Of a stretch of DNA of 49,283 nt, positions 34,924-45,805 are shown piece after piece (positions within the stretch are counted from its first letter, which is position 1; each line of letters begins with the position of its first letter). Source of the stretch: Nitrospira sp. (GTDB lineage: Bacteria; Nitrospirota; Nitrospiria; Nitrospirales; Nitrospiraceae); contig SWDI01000001.1 of assembly GCA_005116955.1 (NCBI GenBank), forward strand, positions 103,081-152,363, read 5' to 3'. The notes under the pieces were generated by a model. The model saw only the letters and a list, made by a program, of their open reading frames with translations. It had not been told where the DNA came from and ran no database searches. The position numbers and the translations under genes were made by a program.

Positions 34924-35111
34924 CCTGTAGCATCTCGCAACAGCTGATCCTCCATTGACTGTGGTTTTTCACACCAGGCGAAGCACCTGTATTCCCCATC
35001 AGGGCTTGATTTCCACGGAATTAGCCATCCTTCTGTTCCCCTGCTCATGGCATGCCCCTTGCCAGTTATCCAACCTAAGAGCTTGCGAAGACCGGATGGG
35101 GGCCGGAGAGG

Positions 35112-35510
35112 ATGTCGCGTATGACGAAGGGAAAAGCCGCTGTGTTGCTGATCGTCGAGGATGACCGTGAAATGCGCAGTCTGCTATGCGATGAATTTTG
35201 CGGAATAGGATATCAGCTGCGTGAAGCAAGGGATGGGGACGAAGCATTTCTGGCCGTGCTGCAGTCCGTGCCGGATCTGATTTTGACGGATCTACGGATG
35301 CCGGCAGGAGGAGATGACTACATCAGCCGGCTGAGGACTGTGGCACCCAGGTGTCCCATCGTCGTCATCACGGGATTCGGCGATCCGACATTGAAAGCGC
35401 AGGTACTGAAAGCGGGGGCGAACGCGTACTTTGACAAACCCGTCCGTGTTGCTGACCTCAAGCATTGTGTGCAACAATTACTTGATCACGAACCCAGAGC
35501 TGATGGCTGA
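35112..35510 (+). CDS. Single-domain response regulator
   Basis: A 132-residue receiver: acidic pocket EDD near 16-18, phospho-Asp in LILTDLRMP near 60, Thr in VVITGFGDP, Lys in YFDKPVRV. No output domain. Its 3' end overlaps the next gene (ATG at 35503) by 8 bp, so the two are probably coupled. It may pass phosphate from the PAS kinase to, or regulate, the downstream sigma-54 activator. Confidence 0.9.
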
Positions 35511-36933
35511 CGGCATATGCCTTATGCTCTTCATCCCGAGAAATGAGCCCGCTTTGTGTGATGCAGAACGCCTTGACGGGCCGCCACCGGCGGATCCCAT
35601 CATTGCCGCGCGAATCGAAGCCATCAAGCAGTTAGCAGAGGGACTCTCGGACCGCGTGGCGGTGATGGACCCCGCATTCAATGTCGTCTACGCGAACGAG
35701 GCAGCCTGGGCTGTCGACCAGACTCAAACACCTCGCCGATCTCATGCCAAATGCTATGAAGCATTTGCGCATCGGACCGACCCTTGCGAGACCTGTCCGG
35801 CTATAAGGGTATTTAAGGCACCCGAGGTCCAGTGCGTATCTTGTTCCGGCGGAGGAGACGGCACGGCCTGCGGGATGCAACAAGCCTTTCCCTTAGCGGA
35901 TGCGCAGGGAACGGTGGCCTCCATGCTGGTGCTCTTTAATCCGACACCGAAGTCGCATGGTCGAGCAACGCCAGAGGACGCCACCGGCCAGGCGGGAGGC
36001 GATGGTCTGGGGGATTTGATCGGTCGAAGTCCGGCCATGCGGCAGCTGTTCGACATGACTCGTCTTGTGGCGGACAGTTCGGCGACCGTCCTCATACAAG
36101 GGGAGAGCGGAACGGGTAAGGAAATCCTGGCGAGAACGATTCATGCGCTCAGCAGCCGGAAAGATCGGCCGTTCGTCGTCGTCGATTGCGGATCCCTGCC
36201 AGAAACACTGCTCGAAAGTGAACTGTTCGGGCACGTGAAGGGTGCCTTCACCGGGGCGGTCACCAATAAGCGTGGGCTCTTCGAAGAGGCAGACGGCGGG
36301 ACCATCTTCCTCGACGAGATCGCCGATACCACGCCGACCTTTCAAGCGAAGCTACTCCGCGTTCTGCAAGAGGGCGAGATCAAGCCCGTTGGTGGAACCA
36401 GGTCGCTGAAGATCCATGCGCGGGTCCTCTCTGCCTCGAACAAAGATCTGGCCGAACTCGTGAAGGCCAAGACATTTCGGCAGGATCTGTACTATCGACT
36501 GGCCGTGTTGCCTCTCTATTTGCCGGCTCTCCAGGAACGGCGAGAAGACATCCCGCTGTTAGTCCAGCACTTCATCGCCGCTTCGTGCGCGCGACATCAT
36601 CAACCGGTTCGGCAGATCGCCGAGCGAACGATGAGGACGTTGCGCGATGCCCCGTGGCCCGGCAATGTCCGACAATTGCAGCATTACGTCGAACGGGCCG
36701 TGGTAACGACCGCCGGGCCGTGGCTCCGGTGTGATGATCTCCTAGACGTTGGCATCGCTGACGAGCACGAGAGTTTACGCTCAACGTCGCGAGGGGTGGT
36801 TGCCCAGGCCGAGCGCACACGGATCGTTGACGCGCTGGAGAAGACCGCAGGAAACCGATTGAAAGCCGCCAAGTTGCTCAAGATCAGCCGAGCGAGTCTC
36901 TATAACAAACTTCGTGCCTATAGCATCGAATAG
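35503..36933 (+). CDS. Sigma-54-dependent transcriptional activator with Cys-rich PAS domain
   Basis: The 476-residue protein (ATG at 35503; 35524 is an alternative) has an N-terminal PAS-like sensor (about 20-145) with a cluster of six Cys: CYEAF, PCETCPA, VQCVSC and ACGM. The AAA+ domain has GESGTGKE, a canonical GAFTGA loop, IFLDEIADT and WPGNVRQL, followed by a Fis-type helix-turn-helix at the C terminus ([20 protein letters not shown]). Such Cys sets can bind a metal or Fe-S/haem cofactor and sense redox state (inference). It has no receiver domain. A sigma-54 promoter lies 390 bp downstream and is its likely target. Confidence 0.92.
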
Positions 36934-37324: not shown

Positions 37325-37340
37325 TGGCACGAACGTTGCG
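37325..37340 (+). promoter_or_regulatory. Sigma-54 promoter (-24/-12)
   Basis: TGGCACG-AACG-TTGC (37325-37339) matches the sigma-54 consensus TGGCACG-N4-TTGC at every fixed base. GG (37326-37327) and GC (37338-37339) have the required 10-bp interval. The transcript should start near 37351, leaving a 176-base leader before the ATG at 37527. It lies directly behind the gene for a sigma-54 activator with an intact GAFTGA loop. Confidence 0.85.
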
Positions 37341-37526: not shown

Positions 37527-38522
37527 ATGTACGTTGTTCCGGTTGCCTTGTTGCTCGTACTGCACATGGCCGGTACGGCGTTCGCGGATGGCGCGCACGG
37601 CGGCCATCATACGCCGCAGCTTCTCAGTCAGCCGAACACGCAGCCGAACACGACGGTCACCTATGAAGGCAATCGTGTCACGGTGACGTTCGGTCCGGTG
37701 GATTTGCCGACCGGGCATGACGGCGAGCTCGCGGCCAGCATACCGAAACACCTCTTTACGTTGCCCGACGACATGACCATGGTCGGCTTCCATTCCGCCG
37801 TCTTTCAAAAAGACGGGACGCCGCTTCCCCGTCAGTATCTTCACCATATTTTGATGATCAACCAGAACAAAGACAGCGCCGCGTGCCCAGGTGAGCCGCT
37901 GTTCTTTGCCGGCGCCGGCATGGAGATGGCTGAGACGCGATTTCCCGCTGGGTATGGAGTCAAGCTCGCCAAGGGGCAAAAGCTTATGACCATCGTCGCG
38001 TTCTATCACGGGGTGCCACCCACGAAGGATGTGATGGCCAGTTTTACGATGGAGATGGCGCCGAAGGGCGCCCCGGTCCAGACGCTGGATGTCTACCAGG
38101 TCGGCGTCAACGTGGTCTGCTTCACCAAATTCGACAAGCGGCGGGCGGACGAGACCGACGAGGGCATCGAGATCCAGCGGGGCGTGCAAGTGGATCGCGC
38201 GCCGCTCAAATTCAAGATGGACGGCTGCGTGAAGTTTGCCTATCCGCATGGACACGATCAAGCGTTGCTGATTGCTCTGGAGAACAAGACGGCGCAGCGG
38301 ACGATGCTTCGGACGGTTCCCGACGTCGCGCCGGACGGCTCGTTCCTGTCGTTTTTACCGCATCAGATTTATCAGAGCCCACAGGGTTTCTCCGTGAACC
38401 AGCGCGACGAGTACGAAATGGTCATGGTGCATCACCGTCCCTTGCAGGAACCCCAGACGAATCATGGGATGGGGAACTATCTGCTCTACATGACGGCGGG
38501 AACATGTCCGGACACGAAGTAG
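37527..38522 (+). CDS. Secreted His-rich protein, copper monooxygenase-like
   Basis: The 331-residue protein starts with a Sec signal peptide (core VVPVALLLVLHMAGTAFA, cleavage near residue 20) followed by a His-rich segment HGGHH. H106-H107 in YLHHILMIN resemble the His pair at the start of the peptidylglycine monooxygenase (PHM)-like beta-sandwich; more His lie in VMVHHRP near the C terminus. This makes a copper-binding, two-beta-sandwich periplasmic protein likely, but catalysis is unproven. About six Cys are present, which suits disulfides in the periplasm. Ribosome binding site GGAGGG. It is first in an operon with a 2OG oxygenase. Confidence 0.75.
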   Translation: MYVVPVALLLVLHMAGTAFADGAHGGHHTPQLLSQPNTQPNTTVTYEGNRVTVTFGPVDLPTGHDGELAASIPKHLFTLPDDMTMVGFHSAVFQKDGTPLPRQYLHHILMINQNKDSAACPGEPLFFAGAGMEMAETRFPAGYGVKLAKGQKLMTIVAFYHGVPPTKDVMASFTMEMAPKGAPVQTLDVYQVGVNVVCFTKFDKRRADETDEGIEIQRGVQVDRAPLKFKMDGCVKFAYPHGHDQALLIALENKTAQRTMLRTVPDVAPDGSFLSFLPHQIYQSPQGFSVNQRDEYEMVMVHHRPLQEPQTNHGMGNYLLYMTAGTCPDTK

Positions 38523-38552
38523 TGACGTGATCCTCTGATGAAGGAGGGGCCC

Positions 38553-39413
38553 ATGTCGGAGCCCAAAGACATTGTAGCTGGGGTTGAGGACCGCCTCGGC
38601 GAGGCCATCGCGGAGCTGGATGAACAGGACATGCACCGAGTCTATTGGAACCAGAACGAGTTTGTCCTTTTCCCACGGTTCATCCCTCCTGCTCTGGTCG
38701 AGCCGTGCCTGACCGAGATTGAAGAGGTTGAGCCGGACATCAATCGGAATTACGTACCCGGCCACAAGCAGGGAGGCAGCGTCAGCTCCTACGTCATTCG
38801 TGAAAAAGCGCCGGCGATTCTGGCCTTATATCGGTCACCCGCGCTTCGGATGTTCCTCAGCCGGCTGGTCGATGCTCCCCTCATGCTCTGTCCCGAAGAC
38901 GATCCACATGCCTGTGCGTTGTATTACTACACGAAGCCCGGCGACCACATCGGTTTTCACTATGACACATCCTACTACAAAGGCGCCCGCTATACGGTTC
39001 TCATCGGCCTGATCGAGCAATCCGAGCATTGTCGCCTAGTGGCACGGGTGCATAAGGGGAAGACGCTCACTGAGATCAGCGAAACCCGTATTCCGATGGA
39101 ACCGGGAACGATGGTGGTGTTCAACGGCGACAAGCTCTGGCATGCCGTCACACCGCTTGGGGCTCACGAACGGCGGGTGATCTTGACGCTGCAATACGTG
39201 ACGGATCAGCGGATGGGGCCGCTCAAGAAACTGTTCTCCAACATGAAGGATGCGTTTGCCTACTTCGGGCCAGCCGCGCTGATGCATCGACCCAAGTCGA
39301 TGCAGACCTCGATCAACGACCGCGCGATGATCCGGGCCGACATGATGACCGATCATCCGACGCTGCAATTTCTCGTGGGAGCATGGAGTGCATCTCTCAA
39401 TCGCGATTCCTGA
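38553..39413 (+). CDS. 2OG-Fe(II) oxygenase-family protein
   Basis: The 286-residue protein (ATG at 38553 after AAGGAGGGG) has the iron-binding HxD at H136-Y-D138 (HIGFHYDTSYYKGARYT) and the distal His with a 2-oxoglutarate-binding Arg in LWHAVTPLGAHERRVIL. The C-terminal extension after about residue 210 is unusual and helical. Such enzymes hydroxylate proteins, lipids or small molecules; the substrate is unknown. It follows the secreted protein by 30 bp, so both are probably made from the sigma-54 promoter. Confidence 0.82.
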   Translation: MSEPKDIVAGVEDRLGEAIAELDEQDMHRVYWNQNEFVLFPRFIPPALVEPCLTEIEEVEPDINRNYVPGHKQGGSVSSYVIREKAPAILALYRSPALRMFLSRLVDAPLMLCPEDDPHACALYYYTKPGDHIGFHYDTSYYKGARYTVLIGLIEQSEHCRLVARVHKGKTLTEISETRIPMEPGTMVVFNGDKLWHAVTPLGAHERRVILTLQYVTDQRMGPLKKLFSNMKDAFAYFGPAALMHRPKSMQTSINDRAMIRADMMTDHPTLQFLVGAWSASLNRDS

Positions 39414-39894
39414 GGCGCAGGTGGTTGAAGCCCCGGCCTTGCTGCGGATAGTCCGAATGGCGCCGGCCTGCGATGTAGAGGCCGATGAACAGGGGGCGTC
39501 GTATGTCGCGCTCTTCGATGATTTCCCCAAATCGGTCGAAATCGTCGTACGACTGATCGAGGAGGCGTGGGACCTACGCGATGTCCACATCACACTCGAA
39601 GGCAGACCCGTCGTGAGCCGGATAAACTTCTATGCCGCCCTCCGCTGCTATCACGAGAGTCTTGGTGCGCCGGATGCGGAAGCCTACTGTCTTCAGCAAG
39701 CGGCGAATGTGAACAATGAAGCAGGGTGCCCTGATCGAGCGTGTCTGTCCCCTTGTCAGTTTATGTGTTCACGATGCGTGGGACTGTCGCGCCATCAGAG
39801 TGCGCCTCCGATTTCAATTCAACTCTTGGAACTGGCGCGCCGGGCGGAAGTGGACTGGTGTCCGAACCTGCGCATCGCGAAGGTAGATGCGTGA
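39388..39894 (+). CDS. Cys-rich hypothetical protein (168 aa)
   Basis: The gene starts at a GTG (39388) inside the end of the oxygenase gene (26-bp overlap), which implies coupled translation. The N-terminal 100 residues are alpha/beta with no recognised motif. A second part has a Cys cluster, CPDRAC-LSPC-QFMC-SRC, then a helix. The cluster suggests a metal or Fe-S site. The overlap and shared direction place it in the same operon as the secreted protein and 2OG oxygenase. Function unknown. Confidence 0.7.
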   Translation: MHLSIAIPEAQVVEAPALLRIVRMAPACDVEADEQGASYVALFDDFPKSVEIVVRLIEEAWDLRDVHITLEGRPVVSRINFYAALRCYHESLGAPDAEAYCLQQAANVNNEAGCPDRACLSPCQFMCSRCVGLSRHQSAPPISIQLLELARRAEVDWCPNLRIAKVDA

Positions 39895-40075: not shown

Positions 40076-41020
40076 ATGCAGGTTCAGAAGAGCAGGAGGA
40101 ACATCGGGTTGTGGTCTGTTGCGGTGTCACTCGCCGCAGTGTTCGCTCTTGGAGCACCGGTGCTGAGCAGCTCAGCGCTTGCCGCCGTCAATCCACACGT
40201 GAGCGAAGCAGTCGAGCATGCGAAAGGTGCCGCGTCACATGGGAAGCAGGGACATGCCGACGCCTGTGTTCAGCGCGCGGAGGAAGCGCTTAAGCATGCA
40301 CAAGCGGCTGGAGTGAAAAACCCGCATGTGGATATGGGCGTCATACATCTGATGGAGGCGGTGCAACACGGCAAGGCCGGGCATGCGGATGCGTGCACCG
40401 AACATGCCGAGGGTGCGTCCACGCATTTGGCTGAAGTCTTAGCTGAAGGTACGACGTCAACTGGGAACCGCGTGTTCTTTCGCGGGGGCTATGGCGAGAT
40501 GCTGAGCGATCGCGCCGGAGAGTTTATCACCGACGTCCATACCAAGGGGAATACCGGGACCGGCGGCTATTACATCGGCGGTGGAGCGGAACTCATGGTC
40601 ACCAAGGACCTGTGGGGTATGATGCCAGGCGTTGCGCTCGTGGGCGAGATCGGATTGGAATTCAAAAGATGGAGTTCCAGCAGCGTCGTGAATGGGGAGG
40701 CCCTGGTTGGGAATACGGCTCCGGCCAAGGTGCAGATGACCATGTTGACGGCGAGTGTGGCCCCCAAGATCAAGTTCAGGCAGGGGACCGATTTCCAGCC
40801 CTGGATCATTCCGGCCGGGTTGGATTTCCACGTCATCAGCCCGACATCCAGTCAGGTGAATTATTTGGACATCGGGGTTCAGTTCGGTGGGGGCGCGGAG
40901 TTTCGCGTGTGGAAAGAGTTGTGGCTTGGGCTCGACAGTCGATTCCACCTGGCGTCCAATCAAACCAACACGGTGAATAATTTCTGGACCACCGGCATCT
41001 ATGGGGCCATTGGATTCTAA
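40076..41020 (+). CDS. SmbP-like metal-binding domain fused to an outer-membrane beta-barrel
   Basis: The 314-residue protein has a signal peptide (residues 1-37, ALA cut site), then two copies of a His-rich helical repeat (about 38-80 and 83-125): NPHVSEAVEHAKGAASHGKQ and NPHVDMGVIHLMEAVQHGKA, each followed by GHADAC. This is the A-x2-H-x3-A pattern of SmbP, a small metal-binding protein of ammonia oxidisers. From residue about 130 the sequence alternates in short polar/hydrophobic strands ending in F (GAIGF), typical of an outer-membrane barrel. The joining of these two parts is unusual. Ribosome binding site GGGAGGGGG. Confidence 0.8.
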   Translation: MQVQKSRRNIGLWSVAVSLAAVFALGAPVLSSSALAAVNPHVSEAVEHAKGAASHGKQGHADACVQRAEEALKHAQAAGVKNPHVDMGVIHLMEAVQHGKAGHADACTEHAEGASTHLAEVLAEGTTSTGNRVFFRGGYGEMLSDRAGEFITDVHTKGNTGTGGYYIGGGAELMVTKDLWGMMPGVALVGEIGLEFKRWSSSSVVNGEALVGNTAPAKVQMTMLTASVAPKIKFRQGTDFQPWIIPAGLDFHVISPTSSQVNYLDIGVQFGGGAEFRVWKELWLGLDSRFHLASNQTNTVNNFWTTGIYGAIGF

Positions 41021-41082: not shown

Positions 41083-41157
41083 GAAGCGTATTTCGTGAAG
41101 CGTGAAGCGCAGGACGGAAGGGGAAGATATCTCCTCCTTGTTTGCGCGATACGCTTC
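41083..41157. repeat. Inverted repeat between the SmbP-barrel and Cld-like genes
   Basis: GAAGCGTAT (41083-41091) pairs with ATACGCTTC (41149-41157). The left side continues as TTTCGTGAAGCGTGAAGCG, which resembles the reverse complement of the gyrB-gyrA spacer element. Probably a dispersed extragenic repeat. Confidence 0.45.
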
Positions 41158-41274
41158 GCGAGATATGAGCGACGAAGATCGGAACAAAACTAAGTGAAGG
41201 CAAGACAAAGGTTGCGGCTACTGATGAACGAATAGGTAAGTGGTCCTCTCCGGAAGTACTACAAAGGAGTTGCA

Positions 41275-41997
41275 ATGTCCATCCCTGAACAAGCCCCAGC
41301 GCCTCAGGCATCCACACGCCAGTATGTCAATTTTGTGTTTTATAAAGTCGACCCAGCCTGGCGGCGTTTGCCGGAGGATATGCGCACCCAGGGTAAACAG
41401 GAGTTCCTCCGGGCCGTGGAGGACTACAACGGCAAGGTCCTGGTGGTGCCGTATTCCACCATCGGTATCCGAGGAGATTGCGACTTTATGCTCTGGCGTA
41501 TCAGCTATGACCTGGACCTCTTCCAAGACATGAGCGCCAAGCTCCTCGCCTCCGGCCTGGGGCAATACCTCACGACCCCGTATTCCTATCTGGCGATGAC
41601 CAAACGGTCGATCTACGTGGACCACCACACCCACGCGGGGCAGGAAGGGAAACGACTGACGGTGGTGCCGGGAAAGAGTAAATATAACTTCGTGTATCCG
41701 TTCCTGAAAACGCGCGAGTGGTTCCTGCTCACGAAGGCGGCGCGACAGGGCATGATGGATGAGCATATCGAAGTGGGCCATCGGTTTCCTTCGGTGAAGC
41801 TGAACACGGCCTATTCATTTGGGTTGGACGATCAGGAATGGGTGGTGGCGTTTGAGAGCGATAAGCCGGAAGACTTTCTGGAACTCGTGATGGCGCTGCG
41901 CGAAACCGAGGGCTCACGCTACACGCTGCGTGACACGCCGATTTTCACCTGCGTTCGCAAGAGTCTCAAAGAAACGCTCGATACACTCGGCGGCTGA
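41275..41997 (+). CDS. Chlorite dismutase-family haem protein
   Basis: The 240-residue protein has the family's dimeric alpha+beta-barrel pattern: QYVNFVFYKVDPAW, YNFVYPFLKTREWF, the proximal-His helix MMDEHIEVGH, and AYSFGLDDQEWVVAFE. By alignment from the conserved GLDD back to the proximal His, the position of the catalytic distal Arg of true chlorite dismutases (KRKLYHSTG in Dechloromonas) falls on Leu here (VKLNTAYSFG). A coproheme-decarboxylase-like, peroxidase-like or other role is therefore as likely as chlorite removal. Clear ribosome binding site (AAAGGAG). A Rieske oxygenase gene follows after 14 bp. Confidence 0.85.
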   Translation: MSIPEQAPAPQASTRQYVNFVFYKVDPAWRRLPEDMRTQGKQEFLRAVEDYNGKVLVVPYSTIGIRGDCDFMLWRISYDLDLFQDMSAKLLASGLGQYLTTPYSYLAMTKRSIYVDHHTHAGQEGKRLTVVPGKSKYNFVYPFLKTREWFLLTKAARQGMMDEHIEVGHRFPSVKLNTAYSFGLDDQEWVVAFESDKPEDFLELVMALRETEGSRYTLRDTPIFTCVRKSLKETLDTLGG

Positions 41998-42011
41998 CGC
42001 CAGAGAACTGC

Positions 42012-43052
42012 ATGCTCGAAGGTTTCTGGTACATTGCCGGGGAAAGTACCGCGATCAAGGTCGGCCGGTCCTTCGCATCGGTGCTCTGCAACCAGCCATT
42101 GGTGCTGTTTCGGGATGGGCAGGGTCGCGTGCATGCGCTGGAAGACCGCTGTCCCCACAAGGGCGTGCCACTCTCGTCGGCCCGGCAGGAAGGGGATTCT
42201 CTGCGTTGCCCTTTTCACGGGTGGCGCTTTATCTCTTCCGGTGAGTGTGTGGAAGTACCGGCCATCGGCAACGTAGCACATCCATCACTGGCCTCGGCCT
42301 GCGTGAAGACCTTTCCAGCCGAAGAGCAGGATGGCTGGGTGTGGGTCTACATTGGCAACGACCGGTGCCCGAAACCTTCGTCTCCACCACCGTCGTTGCC
42401 GGTTCCGGCCGATGGCAGTCCGATGATTTCCGTGCGCGAGTCCGCCGAGGCGAAAGTCCGGTGGGATTTCGCAGTGGATAGCCTGATGGATCCCGCCCAT
42501 GTCCCGTTCGTGCATAACAACTATTTCCGGCGGCGCGAGGCGGCGAGGAAAAAAGAAAAGGTGTTCACGCGGCTGCCGTTGGGGTTTCGCACGATCTCGC
42601 AGAATGTCTTGCTGCCGGACACTTTTATCTTTCGCGCCTTGTCTCCGAGGCTGGGCTCAGCCACGACCACGGTCGATTTCGTGCTGCCAGGCATCCATCT
42701 GGAACGATGGGAGATCGGCACACGGTTCGCGTCCGTCATGTTGGTGGCCACGCCGCTTACGGATGAACGAAGCCGGTTCGACATTTGCGTCGGGTGGAAC
42801 TTCTTGCACGGGCTACCTGTGGGATGGCTCGTCCGCCGGACTTTACGCACCATTCTTGGCCAGGACCGATACATCCTGGAATTGCAGGAACAGGGGTTCG
42901 GCCAGAAGGGAAGTATGTTATTGAACTTAGAATCGGACACATTGGCCGTGTGGTACCGTCGGCTGAAGAGATATCGTTTGGATCAATTGGCTGGTGTGCC
43001 TAACCTCCAACATCCGGTTCCGGAGAAGACCACGCTTAGCTGGATCACGTGA
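42012..43052 (+). CDS. Rieske non-haem iron oxygenase
   Basis: The 346-residue protein has an N-terminal Rieske 2Fe-2S domain (C47-P-H49 and C66-PF-H69) and a catalytic domain with the mononuclear-iron triad D160-PA-H163-VPFV-H168. The pattern resembles the pheophorbide a/choline-type oxygenase group rather than ring-hydroxylating dioxygenases. A reductase partner is not encoded here; the ferredoxin at 20514 might serve (inference). No signal peptide. The 14-bp gap after the Cld-family gene indicates one operon, so the substrate may be a tetrapyrrole. Confidence 0.87.
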   Translation: MLEGFWYIAGESTAIKVGRSFASVLCNQPLVLFRDGQGRVHALEDRCPHKGVPLSSARQEGDSLRCPFHGWRFISSGECVEVPAIGNVAHPSLASACVKTFPAEEQDGWVWVYIGNDRCPKPSSPPPSLPVPADGSPMISVRESAEAKVRWDFAVDSLMDPAHVPFVHNNYFRRREAARKKEKVFTRLPLGFRTISQNVLLPDTFIFRALSPRLGSATTTVDFVLPGIHLERWEIGTRFASVMLVATPLTDERSRFDICVGWNFLHGLPVGWLVRRTLRTILGQDRYILELQEQGFGQKGSMLLNLESDTLAVWYRRLKRYRLDQLAGVPNLQHPVPEKTTLSWIT

Positions 43053-43830: not shown

Positions 43831-44307
43831 ATGTACTACACGCTCGTGATTCTCCATATTCTTGCCGCGGTGAGTTGGGTCGGTGGTATGATCTTTCTCT
43901 CCTTGGTCTTGGCCCCCTTGGTCAGGGGGCGGAAAGCTGCGCCTGAATTCATGGCGCTGTTTCGCTCTGCCGCGCTACGGTTTCGCCCCATCGTCTGGAT
44001 CACGATGGCGATCTTGTTGATGACCGGGCCGATGTTACTCTCACACCGTGGTCTCAGTGTCATGGCACCGGCTTCCTGGCCGGGAATCGTGACCGTGAAA
44101 CTGATGTTGGTCGCCTTGTTGTTGTTCCTGACACTCCTCCATGATCTTGTCTTTGGTCCTCAGATCAGTCGGGTCAGCGCGATCGCAGAATCTCAGCGAA
44201 CGATCGGAGAGCGGGTCATCTTCAAATCTGCTCGCTGGTTGCCACGTCTTTCATTGCTCATCGCGCTGGCCGTAGTCGTTGCGGCGGCGCTGCTGGCACG
44301 GTCATGA
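43831..44307 (+). CDS. CopD-family membrane protein
   Basis: The 158-residue inner-membrane protein has four hydrophobic spans (about 5-27, 50-70, 80-103, 132-156). The first contains ILHILAAVSWVGGMIFLSLVLAPLV, and the second WITMAILLMTGPMLL, as in the copper-resistance CopD/YcnJ-type domain; the conserved His and Trp of the first span are present. Function in the family is not firmly known (copper import or haem-linked). It lies with other haem and metal genes but is separated from the FGE-like gene by a convergent gap. Confidence 0.75.
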   Translation: MYYTLVILHILAAVSWVGGMIFLSLVLAPLVRGRKAAPEFMALFRSAALRFRPIVWITMAILLMTGPMLLSHRGLSVMAPASWPGIVTVKLMLVALLLFLTLLHDLVFGPQISRVSAIAESQRTIGERVIFKSARWLPRLSLLIALAVVVAAALLARS

Positions 44308-44527: not shown

Positions 44528-45805
44528 TTATGCAGTCTTTGCGCAGCGAAACCCGTAGCCGAACTGCCGTCCGGATGGATCGGCATTGAAACGGAACGAA
44601 GAGCGCAAGAATTCCTGAACATACAGCCAGTTCCCACCTCGCACGACTTTCGATTTACCCGTTGTCGGCCCTTGAGGATTCTTCACCGGGCTCTTCTTGT
44701 AATAGTCATGGTCATACCAGTCGTTGACCCATTCCCAGGCATTGCCGGCCATGTCGTAGATACCGTAGGGACTCTTGCCCATTTCGAACATCCCCACCGG
44801 AACTAAGGCCATATGAGAAGCCCATTCCTTCTTGCCAAAATTCGCGTGGAGCCTGGTGGGAGCCTCGTTGCCCCAGGGGTAGAGGCGGCCATCCGTTCCC
44901 CGCGCCGATTTTTCCCACTCAGCTTCAGTCGGCAGACGCTTGCCGGCCCATTTGCAGTACGTGGCCGCATCCGACCAGCTGACGTTCACGACCGGACGTT
45001 TCTGATGGCGAGGTTCGTTCATGAACTCCCACTCCGGCGGCACTTCTGCGCCCGCCGCCTCCAGATACTTGGCATACTGCCCAACCGTCACGTGGTACTT
45101 GTCCATATAGAAAGCGCCAAGGTAGACGCGATGCACGGGCTTTTCGTCAGCTTTCAGCGTGCTCCCCATCGTGAATTCCCCTGCCGGCACCAGTGCCATT
45201 GGTATGTCACGGGGATCGGTCGGGAACGCTTCTCCTCCTGACCCATCTGGTTTGAGACTATGCGGCGAGGTGGTCGAACGTCGTCCAGGGAATTTCGCTT
45301 GTAACTGTTGATAGACGGCCTGTTGCTCATTATTGAGGCTCAACTCATGAGCGCCGTCCAGAGCCTCCTCCGCCTGCTTCATCTTGTCGGGCTGAGCCTG
45401 TCCACCGGCAAGCAGACCCTTTGCTTCCTCCAGCAAGCGCCACGCAGTCACTTCCTCCAGCGATTGCCACACCTTCATTTTGCTTAACCGTGGTTCCCTC
45501 GTCCCCGTGATCCTGGATTTCGCATCCAGATGTAACGCGGTCTCGTAATGTTCTTCCGCGCAGTCCCAGGCGGCTAATCCTCGACAGGCCTCAGCTAAGT
45601 TGAAATGAGCCTGCACATTCGATGAATTCTTGATGAGCCCTGCCTCCAACATCGCGCGCGCTTCGGCATATTGTTTGTGCTTTAAAAGACTCTCTCCTTT
45701 GGCAAAGTCCTGCTCGCCAGCATCGGCTGCCGGCGCCGCCATGGAGTTGGCGGTCATGTTCAGACATATGACAAAACCCAGCACCCCTAGTGTCTGTCTC
45801 ATCAA
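44528..45805 (-). CDS. Secreted TPR protein with formylglycine-generating-enzyme-like domain
   Basis: The 425-residue protein has a signal peptide (to about residue 23), a tetratricopeptide region (about 28-180: KGESLLKHKQYAEARAMLEAG and HFNLAEACRGLAAWDCAEEHYETAL) and an FGE-sulfatase-type domain (about 195-424) with PMALVPAGEFTMGS, RLPTEAEWEKSARG, YDMAGNAWEWVNDWYD and VVRGGNW. The two Cys of true formylglycine-generating enzymes are not evident (one Cys in TYCKWAG and one in FRCAKTA), so it is more likely a structural or binding member of the family. It is convergent with the CopD-like gene. Confidence 0.85.
   Translation of the reverse strand: MMRQTLGVLGFVICLNMTANSMAAPAADAGEQDFAKGESLLKHKQYAEARAMLEAGLIKNSSNVQAHFNLAEACRGLAAWDCAEEHYETALHLDAKSRITGTREPRLSKMKVWQSLEEVTAWRLLEEAKGLLAGGQAQPDKMKQAEEALDGAHELSLNNEQQAVYQQLQAKFPGRRSTTSPHSLKPDGSGGEAFPTDPRDIPMALVPAGEFTMGSTLKADEKPVHRVYLGAFYMDKYHVTVGQYAKYLEAAGAEVPPEWEFMNEPRHQKRPVVNVSWSDAATYCKWAGKRLPTEAEWEKSARGTDGRLYPWGNEAPTRLHANFGKKEWASHMALVPVGMFEMGKSPYGIYDMAGNAWEWVNDWYDHDYYKKSPVKNPQGPTTGKSKVVRGGNWLYVQEFLRSSFRFNADPSGRQFGYGFRCAKTA

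What the first reader, a model, noticed from the sequence alone, without database searches (positions are those of the whole stretch)
41275..43052. Chlorite dismutase-family protein apparently without the distal Arg, coupled to a Rieske oxygenase
Seen: proximal-His helix present; by my alignment to Dechloromonas Cld (KRKLYHSTG) the catalytic Arg position is Leu (VKLNTAYSFG). A Rieske non-haem iron oxygenase starts 14 bp downstream. Known: true chlorite dismutases need that Arg; decarboxylase-type family members lack it. Inference: the pair might act on haem or another tetrapyrrole instead of chlorite.
Basis: partly seen in the sequence, partly recalled or inferred. Interest (0 to 1): 0.65.

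Follow-up and report, generated by a model that had tools for sequence, protein, structure and literature searches.

The report
Spare haem-making enzyme in Nitrospira
The "chlorite dismutase without its key arginine" is most likely a second copy of the enzyme that makes the last step of haem in an ammonia-oxidising Nitrospira, and its Rieske oxygenase neighbour is a frequent but dispensable companion, so the find is largely explained by known biology.

Summary
ORF 41275-41997 is a Pfam Chlor_dismutase protein with the proximal His (H164) and Leu (L176) where true chlorite dismutases have Arg; a Rieske oxygenase starts 14 bp downstream (42012-43052). The missing Arg is expected, because the protein has the signature of coprohaem decarboxylase (ChdC/HemQ): catalytic Tyr141, distal His118, no proximal Glu. 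The genome (a comammox Nitrospira) has three family members: this copy, a 91%-identical core copy, and a separate true Cld with the Arg. It has the hemE-hemH-hemY gene set. Across 79 genus genomes HemF is found in none and HemN passes its cut-off in none, which fits a coproporphyrin-dependent haem pathway that needs a ChdC. The window copy is an old duplicate under strong purifying selection, with no fixed active-site change. The Rieske pairing is real but not obligate: of 29 genomes with the Rieske, 13 have the intact pair, 8 keep a remnant of a deleted ChdC gene in front of the Rieske, and 4 show none (the other 4 cannot be scored). The copy sits in a gene cluster behind a sigma-54 activator and a conserved sigma-54 promoter motif. 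No evidence shows that the Rieske acts on a tetrapyrrole. No enzyme activity was tested.

The parts
41275..41997 (+). Coprohaem-decarboxylase-type (ChdC/HemQ) protein of the Chlor_dismutase family, 240 aa; cluster paralogue of the core copy
   Evidence: Pfam PF06778 192.7 bits; best PDB matches by E-value are coproheme decarboxylases, 4.1e-23; 91% identical to core copy L031
41626..41628 (+). codon of His118, aligned with the distal catalytic His of actinobacterial ChdC
   Evidence: His in 63 of 63 Nitrospira rows; role in CdChdC from PMC11761711
41695..41697 (+). codon of Tyr141, aligned with the catalytic Tyr of ChdC (Ile in true Clds)
   Evidence: Tyr in 63 of 63 rows; PMC7611857 section 13
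41764..41766 (+). codon of proximal His164
   Evidence: invariant in A2 and in 63 of 63 rows
41800..41802 (+). [quoted passage not shown]
   Evidence: Leu in 63 of 63 rows
41998..42011 (+). 14-bp gap between the two ORFs
   Evidence: the ChdC start to Rieske start distance is 737 in 9 of 12 other intact-pair loci; 758 in L035 and 1010 in L049 and L050 because the script took an earlier start
42012..43052 (+). Rieske non-haem iron oxygenase, 346 aa; CxH...CxxH cluster motif and DxxHxxxxH metal site
   Evidence: Pfam Rieske and VanA_C; C47, H49, C66, H69, D160, H163, H168 invariant in 32 sequences; AlphaFold pLDDT 85, dicamba monooxygenase Z 29.5
35431..36933 (+). sigma-54-dependent activator at the head of the cluster
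   Evidence: Pfam Sigma54_activat 228 bits; same gene before the cluster in 14 of 14 loci with the stretch visible
37325..37339 (+). sigma-54-type promoter motif TGGCAC-N5-TTGC
   Evidence: only exact match in the window, 0.12 expected; exact in 12 of 14 and one mismatch in 2 of 14 cluster loci, between activator and first gene
37527..38522 (+). conserved cluster protein of unknown family, 331 aa (called YHG here)
   Evidence: no Pfam match at E 1; no PDB match with a 6-sequence profile at E 1; orthologues in related clusters
38538..39413 (+). 2-oxoglutarate/Fe(II) oxygenase of the HalD type
   Evidence: Pfam HalD 47.4 bits, cut-off 26
39388..39894 (+). 168-aa ORF overlapping the end of the HalD-type gene; gene status unproven
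   Evidence: the ORF listing; no Pfam match
40076..41020 (+). small metal-binding protein (SMBP) domain protein, 314 aa, with a further C-terminal part
   Evidence: Pfam SMBP 79.3 bits, cut-off 29

Best explanation
The Cld-family protein is a coprohaem decarboxylase. It would oxidatively decarboxylate propionates 2 and 4 of coprohaem with peroxide, using H118 to activate H2O2, Y141 as the radical, and a haem iron bound by H164 without a Glu partner. A Leu in place of the distal Arg is normal for this branch. The genus makes haem by the coproporphyrin-dependent route (HemE, CgoX/HemY, CpfC/HemH, ChdC), with a core ChdC gene beside cinA. The window copy is an old duplicate that keeps the same active site. 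It lies in a gene cluster behind a sigma-54 activator and a sigma-54 promoter motif, together with a 2OG-Fe oxygenase, a metal-binding protein and a Rieske oxygenase. The likeliest purpose is extra haem synthesis under the signal that turns the cluster on. The Rieske enzyme is a separate mononuclear-iron oxygenase of the demethylase/monooxygenase kind; its substrate is unknown. Shown here: sequence signature, gene content, duplication, selection, cluster conservation, promoter motif. Inferred: enzyme activity, co-transcription, reason for the second copy.
For: Signature residues (conserved in 63 of 63 rows) against the criteria in PMC7611857 sections 12-13 and PMC11761711 passages. Top PDB matches are coproheme decarboxylases. 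hemE-hemH-hemY gene set in the same genome, each over an NCBIfam cut-off. In 79 genus genomes: HemY/CgoX over cut-off in 72, HemN in 0, HemF in 0; control genomes rang for HemN (3 of 14 over cut-off) and HemF (3 of 14). A match of at least 74% identity to this protein, fragments included, in 76 of 79. The genome has a separate Arg-bearing Cld with an N-terminal extension. Core and window copies: dN 0.050, dS 1.77. Cluster copies form one group on the tree (16 rows, 1 change, support 86/58, in 87% of bootstrap trees). Sigma-54 motif.
Against: No activity data. The protein scores below the cut-offs of both NCBIfam HemQ models (125.6 of 235 and 76.7 of 253 bits), so it lies outside the two characterised clades. 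Three residues that bind coprohaem propionates in C. diphtheriae ChdC are not kept (E113 to I113, N115 to V115, R208 to S214), although Ser at the last place matches the Firmicute HemQ in the alignment. Gly213 stands where ChdCs have Ala or Val. CgoX was below cut-off in 7 of 79 genomes, two of them 90% and 95% complete. AhbD and other decarboxylases were not searched. The structure model failed. dS is near saturation, so the omega values are rough.
Confidence: 0.8

Rival explanations
1. One reading: the duplicate has been recruited, with the Rieske oxygenase, to modify haem or another tetrapyrrole in a new way.
For: ChdC start to Rieske start distance constant at 737 in 9 of 12 other intact-pair loci, the 3 exceptions being a longer ORF start; 13 genomes keep the intact pair; the ChdC copy is retained under selection.
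Against: The Rieske persists without ChdC in 12 genomes, 8 of them with a ChdC remnant. Cluster ChdC without Rieske in G008 and G075. No fixed active-site difference between cluster and core copies; the only position with different majority residues above 70% in both groups is 203, Glu or Asp. Nearest structures of the Rieske are not tetrapyrrole enzymes.
Confidence: 0.1
2. A working chlorite dismutase that does without the Arg.
For: Family membership in PF06778. [quoted passage not shown]
Against: Arg, proximal Glu and the conserved Ile are all absent. The same genome has an ordinary Cld with all three.
Confidence: 0.03
3. A haem-binding or haem-handling protein of this family (carrier, peroxidase or sensor), with another enzyme doing the decarboxylation.
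For: Not all propionate-binding residues are kept; scores below the NCBIfam HemQ cut-offs; AhbD not searched.
Against: Catalytic Tyr and distal His strictly kept in 63 of 63 rows; near-universal in a genus that lacks HemF and scored no HemN over cut-off.
Confidence: 0.07

Closest known systems
Actinobacterial coprohaem decarboxylase (ChdC/HemQ; Corynebacterium diphtheriae ChdC, PDB 6XUB)
   Same: Proximal His, catalytic Tyr, distal His on the domain-linking loop, Trp, no proximal Glu, no distal Arg
   Different: Lys145 instead of Arg139; Leu instead of Ala at the Arg position; Gly at the Glu position; E113, N115 and R208 not kept; 27-28% identity to the two actinobacterial proteins aligned
Core ChdC-type copy of the same genome (G000:C3, L031)
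   Same: 91% identical, identical at all active-site positions checked
   Different: Lies beside a CinA-like gene, no Rieske or cluster genes nearby
Chlorite dismutase of Candidatus Nitrospira defluvii (NdCld, PDB 3NN1)
   Same: Fold family, proximal His, Lys, Trp
   Different: NdCld has Arg173, Glu210 and Ile at the Tyr position; the window genome has its own such protein (L032)
Dicamba monooxygenase, guaiacol O-demethylase (7QWT), NdmA, SxtT (for the Rieske protein)
   Same: Whole-length fold, Z 26-29.5, about 300 of 346 residues aligned
   Different: 18-25% identity; no reductase or ferredoxin gene recognised in the neighbouring genes examined; substrate unknown

Membership tests
Coprohaem decarboxylase (ChdC/HemQ) | Proximal His coordinating the iron | tested here: met
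   H164 aligned with the proximal His
Coprohaem decarboxylase (ChdC/HemQ) | Catalytic Tyr at the position that is Ile in Clds | tested here: met
   Y141; Ile in L032 and Ideonella Cld; criterion from PMC7611857
Coprohaem decarboxylase (ChdC/HemQ) | No Glu hydrogen-bonded to the proximal His (Ala or Val instead) | tested here: met
   No Glu; residue is Gly213, small but neither Ala nor Val; criterion
Coprohaem decarboxylase (ChdC/HemQ) | Distal His base (actinobacterial type) | tested here: met
   H118; criterion
Coprohaem decarboxylase (ChdC/HemQ) | Propionate-binding residues of C. diphtheriae ChdC (E113, N115, R139, W143, T205, R208) | tested here: inconclusive
   W149, T211 and conservative K145 kept; I113, V115, S214 differ. 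Loop alignment is uncertain; reported as specific contacts of one enzyme, not as universal
Coprohaem decarboxylase (ChdC/HemQ) | Host uses the coproporphyrin-dependent pathway | tested here: met
   hemE-hemH-hemY present; HemF 0 of 79, HemN over cut-off 0 of 79
Coprohaem decarboxylase (ChdC/HemQ) | Turns coprohaem into haem b | not testable with these tools
   needs an assay
NCBIfam HemQ_actino (NF042928) or PRK12276 (NF008913) | Score over the curated cut-off | tested here: not met
   125.6 of 235 and 76.7 of 253 bits; not filed under these two models
Chlorite dismutase (Cld) | Distal Arg | tested here: not met
   L176
Chlorite dismutase (Cld) | Proximal Glu | tested here: not met
   G213
Rieske non-haem iron oxygenase | CxH-CxxH Rieske ligands and 2-His mononuclear iron site | tested here: met
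   C47, H49, C66, H69, D160, H163, H168 invariant in 32 sequences; Pfam; fold
Tetrapyrrole-acting Rieske oxygenase (PaO/CAO type) | PaO-type C-terminal domain | tested here: inconclusive
   Pfam reports VanA_C and no PaO domain at E 0.001; a family not listed is not excluded. That PaO is the mark of such enzymes is recalled

The most novel reading that the evidence does not exclude
A sigma-54 switch in comammox Nitrospira turns on a second coprohaem decarboxylase together with a 2OG-Fe oxygenase, a metal-binding protein and a Rieske oxygenase, so that haem or a partly decarboxylated coprohaem is made and further oxidised into a haem-derived product not yet described.
Probability: 0.08. Interest if true: 0.7.

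Novelty: new member of a known kind. Interest (0 to 1): 0.33.

Why it matters
It corrects a likely misannotation ("chlorite dismutase") in a widespread nitrifier genus. It indicates that Nitrospira, which is diderm (recalled), makes haem by the coproporphyrin route that reviews describe as almost exclusively Gram-positive (PMC10427985, start of abstract in the listing). It also points to a regulated second haem-synthesis gene in comammox organisms, whose respiration depends heavily on haem (recalled). The sigma-54 cluster gives a testable regulon.

Tried and rejected
A scan of viral contigs for the protein found nothing. The unknown 331-aa cluster protein gave no PDB match with a profile and no Pfam match; a first thought of a PHM-like copper enzyme from its HH motifs is dropped as unsupported. 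Apparently split ChdC copies in G008, G012 and G017:C12 turned out to be runs of N in the assemblies, and G017's cluster copy is cut by a scaffold gap; neither is biology. A promoter scan of the sigma-70 type found no more than shuffles (3 against 3.0). With two mismatches the sigma-54 motif is only weakly enriched in the window (63 sites, 47.7 expected, reached by 1 of 100 shuffles), so only the exact, positionally conserved site is used. A repeat-like stretch in the SMBP-ChdC gap (about 41083-41160) was looked at and not pursued. PaO-type domains do not appear among the Pfam results; that absence excludes nothing.

Not found in print: no paper of the held library has chlorite dismutase, Rieske and HemQ together (0 papers). 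Searches listed papers on neighbouring words; none of those listings showed the pair, and most of these papers were not opened. Whether Nitrospira is already described as using the coproporphyrin route was sought; the passages read do not say so. The library lacks most subscription journals.

Full report
WHAT IS THERE. The first belongs to Pfam Chlor_dismutase, the second has a Rieske domain and a VanA_C domain. The genome is a comammox Nitrospira: the closest named hits are Nitrospira records and an ammonia monooxygenase gene (PF02461) is present in G000.

THE MISSING ARGININE. In an eight-protein alignment (residues read out) the stretch between invariant V174 and D186 has no gap, and the column that is Arg in the genome's own true Cld (L032) and in Ideonella Cld is Leu176 in the window protein. 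The column is Ala in two actinobacterial HemQ proteins, Gln in a Firmicute HemQ and Thr in Thermomicrobium. PMC9751292 (passages) says that non-Cld members of PF06778 are mostly HemQ and are often misannotated as Cld.

SIGNATURE OF A COPROHAEM DECARBOXYLASE. PMC7611857 sections 12 and 13 (read) give the distinguishing features: in ChdC a catalytic Tyr stands where Clds have a conserved Ile, the proximal His has no Glu partner, and actinobacterial ChdCs use a distal His. The window protein has Y141 (Ile in both true Clds), G213 (Glu in both true Clds) and H118. These are the same in core and cluster copies: Y141, H118, H164 and L176 in 63 of 63 rows, G213 in 62 and Ala in one. The best PDB matches are coproheme decarboxylases, E 4.1e-23, ahead of Cld entries at 2e-21. 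Against this: both NCBIfam HemQ models score below their cut-offs, and three propionate contacts of C. diphtheriae ChdC (passages of PMC11761711) are replaced (I113, V115, S214). I read this as a third branch of ChdC, not as one of the two described clades.

PATHWAY. In the same genome hemE, hemH and hemY lie together on contig C2, each over an NCBIfam cut-off (TIGR01464, TIGR00109, TIGR00562). In the 79 genomes of the genus HemY/CgoX is over cut-off in 72. HemF is found in 0 of 79, and HemN is over cut-off in 0 of 79; its best scores were 164.6 bits in the genus and 148.0 in the window genome, cut-off 325. Those sub-threshold HemN matches look HemW-like (recalled, not tested). A match of at least 74% identity to the window protein, fragments included, occurs in 76 of 79; G023, G056 and G057 are the exceptions. 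Without a coproporphyrinogen oxidase of the HemF or HemN kind, the route through coprohaem and a ChdC is the simplest. AhbD was not searched.

THREE FAMILY MEMBERS. G000 holds three PF06778 genes: the window copy; a core copy at C3 (L031), 91% identical and beside a CinA-like gene; and a true Cld with Arg, Glu, Ile and an N-terminal extension, next to purine-pathway-like genes (L032). A tree of 63 coding sequences (L028 and L021 dropped as second copies of the same place, L011 as partial) puts the 16 cluster copies on one side of a branch (support 86/58; 87% of 200 bootstrap trees), which suggests one duplication. Within-genome core/cluster pairs: 13 pairs, dN 0.045 to 0.078; dS 1.2 to 1.9 in the 10 pairs where it could be computed, with omega 0.028 to 0.043; the other 3 saturated. 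Median omega is 0.059 in cluster copies (119 of 120 pairs usable) and 0.029 in core copies (415 of 630 usable). The one position with different majority residues above 70% in both groups is 203 (Glu in 12 and Asp in 4 of 16 cluster rows; Asp in 36 of 36 core rows). The copy is old, constrained and unchanged at the active site.

HOW FIRM IS THE RIESKE COUPLING. Orthologues of this Rieske protein (84% or more) occur in 27 of 79 genomes, and two more genomes have one at about 60%. Of these 29: 13 have an intact ChdC gene directly upstream (G000, 004, 009, 013, 015, 016, 019, 034, 059, 064, 065, 072, 078); in G017 the pair is cut by a scaffold gap; 7 have a remnant of the ChdC 3' end directly before the Rieske start (8 loci; 52 to 59 identical bases of 62 to 72; alignment scores 50 to 68 against a highest shuffled score of 26 to 31); G033 has a 5' remnant; 4 (G018, G041, G022, G068) show no remnant; and 3 (G024, G027, G060) have no readable upstream end (G060 was not fetched). 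Two core-Rieske controls and a 65% relative gave no remnant. So the ChdC copy stood next to the Rieske in a common ancestor of many of these genomes and has since been deleted in some while the Rieske stayed. Conversely, the cluster ChdC copies of G008 and G075 have no Rieske within about 7 kb downstream. Ammonia monooxygenase was found in 12 of the 13 intact-pair genomes and in 49 of 79 overall; relatedness is not corrected for.

THE CLUSTER. Before the pair lie, on the same strand, a sigma-54 activator, a protein of unknown family, a HalD-type 2OG-Fe oxygenase and an SMBP-domain protein. In 14 cluster loci where the interval can be read, the motif TGGCAC-N5-TTGC lies between the activator and the first gene: exact in 12, one mismatch in 2. 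In the window it is the only exact match, 0.12 expected. The motif is also present in L109, a Cld-less cluster, so it belongs to the cluster, not to ChdC. The gap of 254 bp before ChdC and, unless the 168-aa ORF is real, 662 bp before SMBP mean that one transcript is not shown.

THE RIESKE PROTEIN. A good AlphaFold model (pLDDT 85, 32 sequences) matches dicamba monooxygenase (Z 29.5), a guaiacol O-demethylase, NdmA and SxtT. The Rieske ligands and the DxxHxxxxH iron site are invariant in the alignment. A paralogue of about 32-36% identity occurs widely in the genus and similar proteins are found in Acidobacteria. This says nothing of the substrate and gives no support for a tetrapyrrole.

VERDICT. 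Observation confirmed; decarboxylase-type reading supported; pair-on-tetrapyrrole reading not supported. The thing is a second, probably regulated ChdC of a known kind. What remains open is why these organisms keep a second copy and what turns the cluster on.

Noticed in passing
L032:7994-8788 (G000:C3): The genome's true chlorite dismutase (Arg, Glu, Ile, N-terminal extension) lies between genes that look like purine-pathway genes.
   Followed up: partly
window 35048-35062: A second sigma-54-like site (TGGCAT-N5-TTGC) about 380 bp before the activator gene; a similar site at the same place in several related clusters, perhaps autoregulation.
   Followed up: partly
window 37527-38522: Conserved 331-aa protein with no Pfam or PDB profile match, found in many clusters of this kind; its place in the cluster varies between loci.
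   Followed up: partly
L094:9543-10634 (G000:C3): Widely conserved 32-36% paralogue of the Rieske protein in the genus, with relatives in Acidobacteria; function unknown.
   Followed up: partly
L095, L096, L097, L098, L099, L100, L101, L109, upstream of the Rieske gene: Remnants of the last ~65 bp of a deleted ChdC gene retained just before the Rieske start codon, perhaps because they hold its translation start region.
   Followed up: yes
L036 and L037 (G040): Two almost identical ChdC-type copies at different places in one genome, outside the Rieske cluster.
   Followed up: no
L199, L200, L201, L202, L102: Runs of N or scaffold gaps inside or beside ChdC-type genes; near-identical duplicates seem to break assemblies of this genus.
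   Followed up: partly
window 43831-44307 and 44528-45805: CopD-like membrane protein and an FGE-sulfatase-type protein follow the cluster and are conserved near it in several genomes.
   Followed up: no
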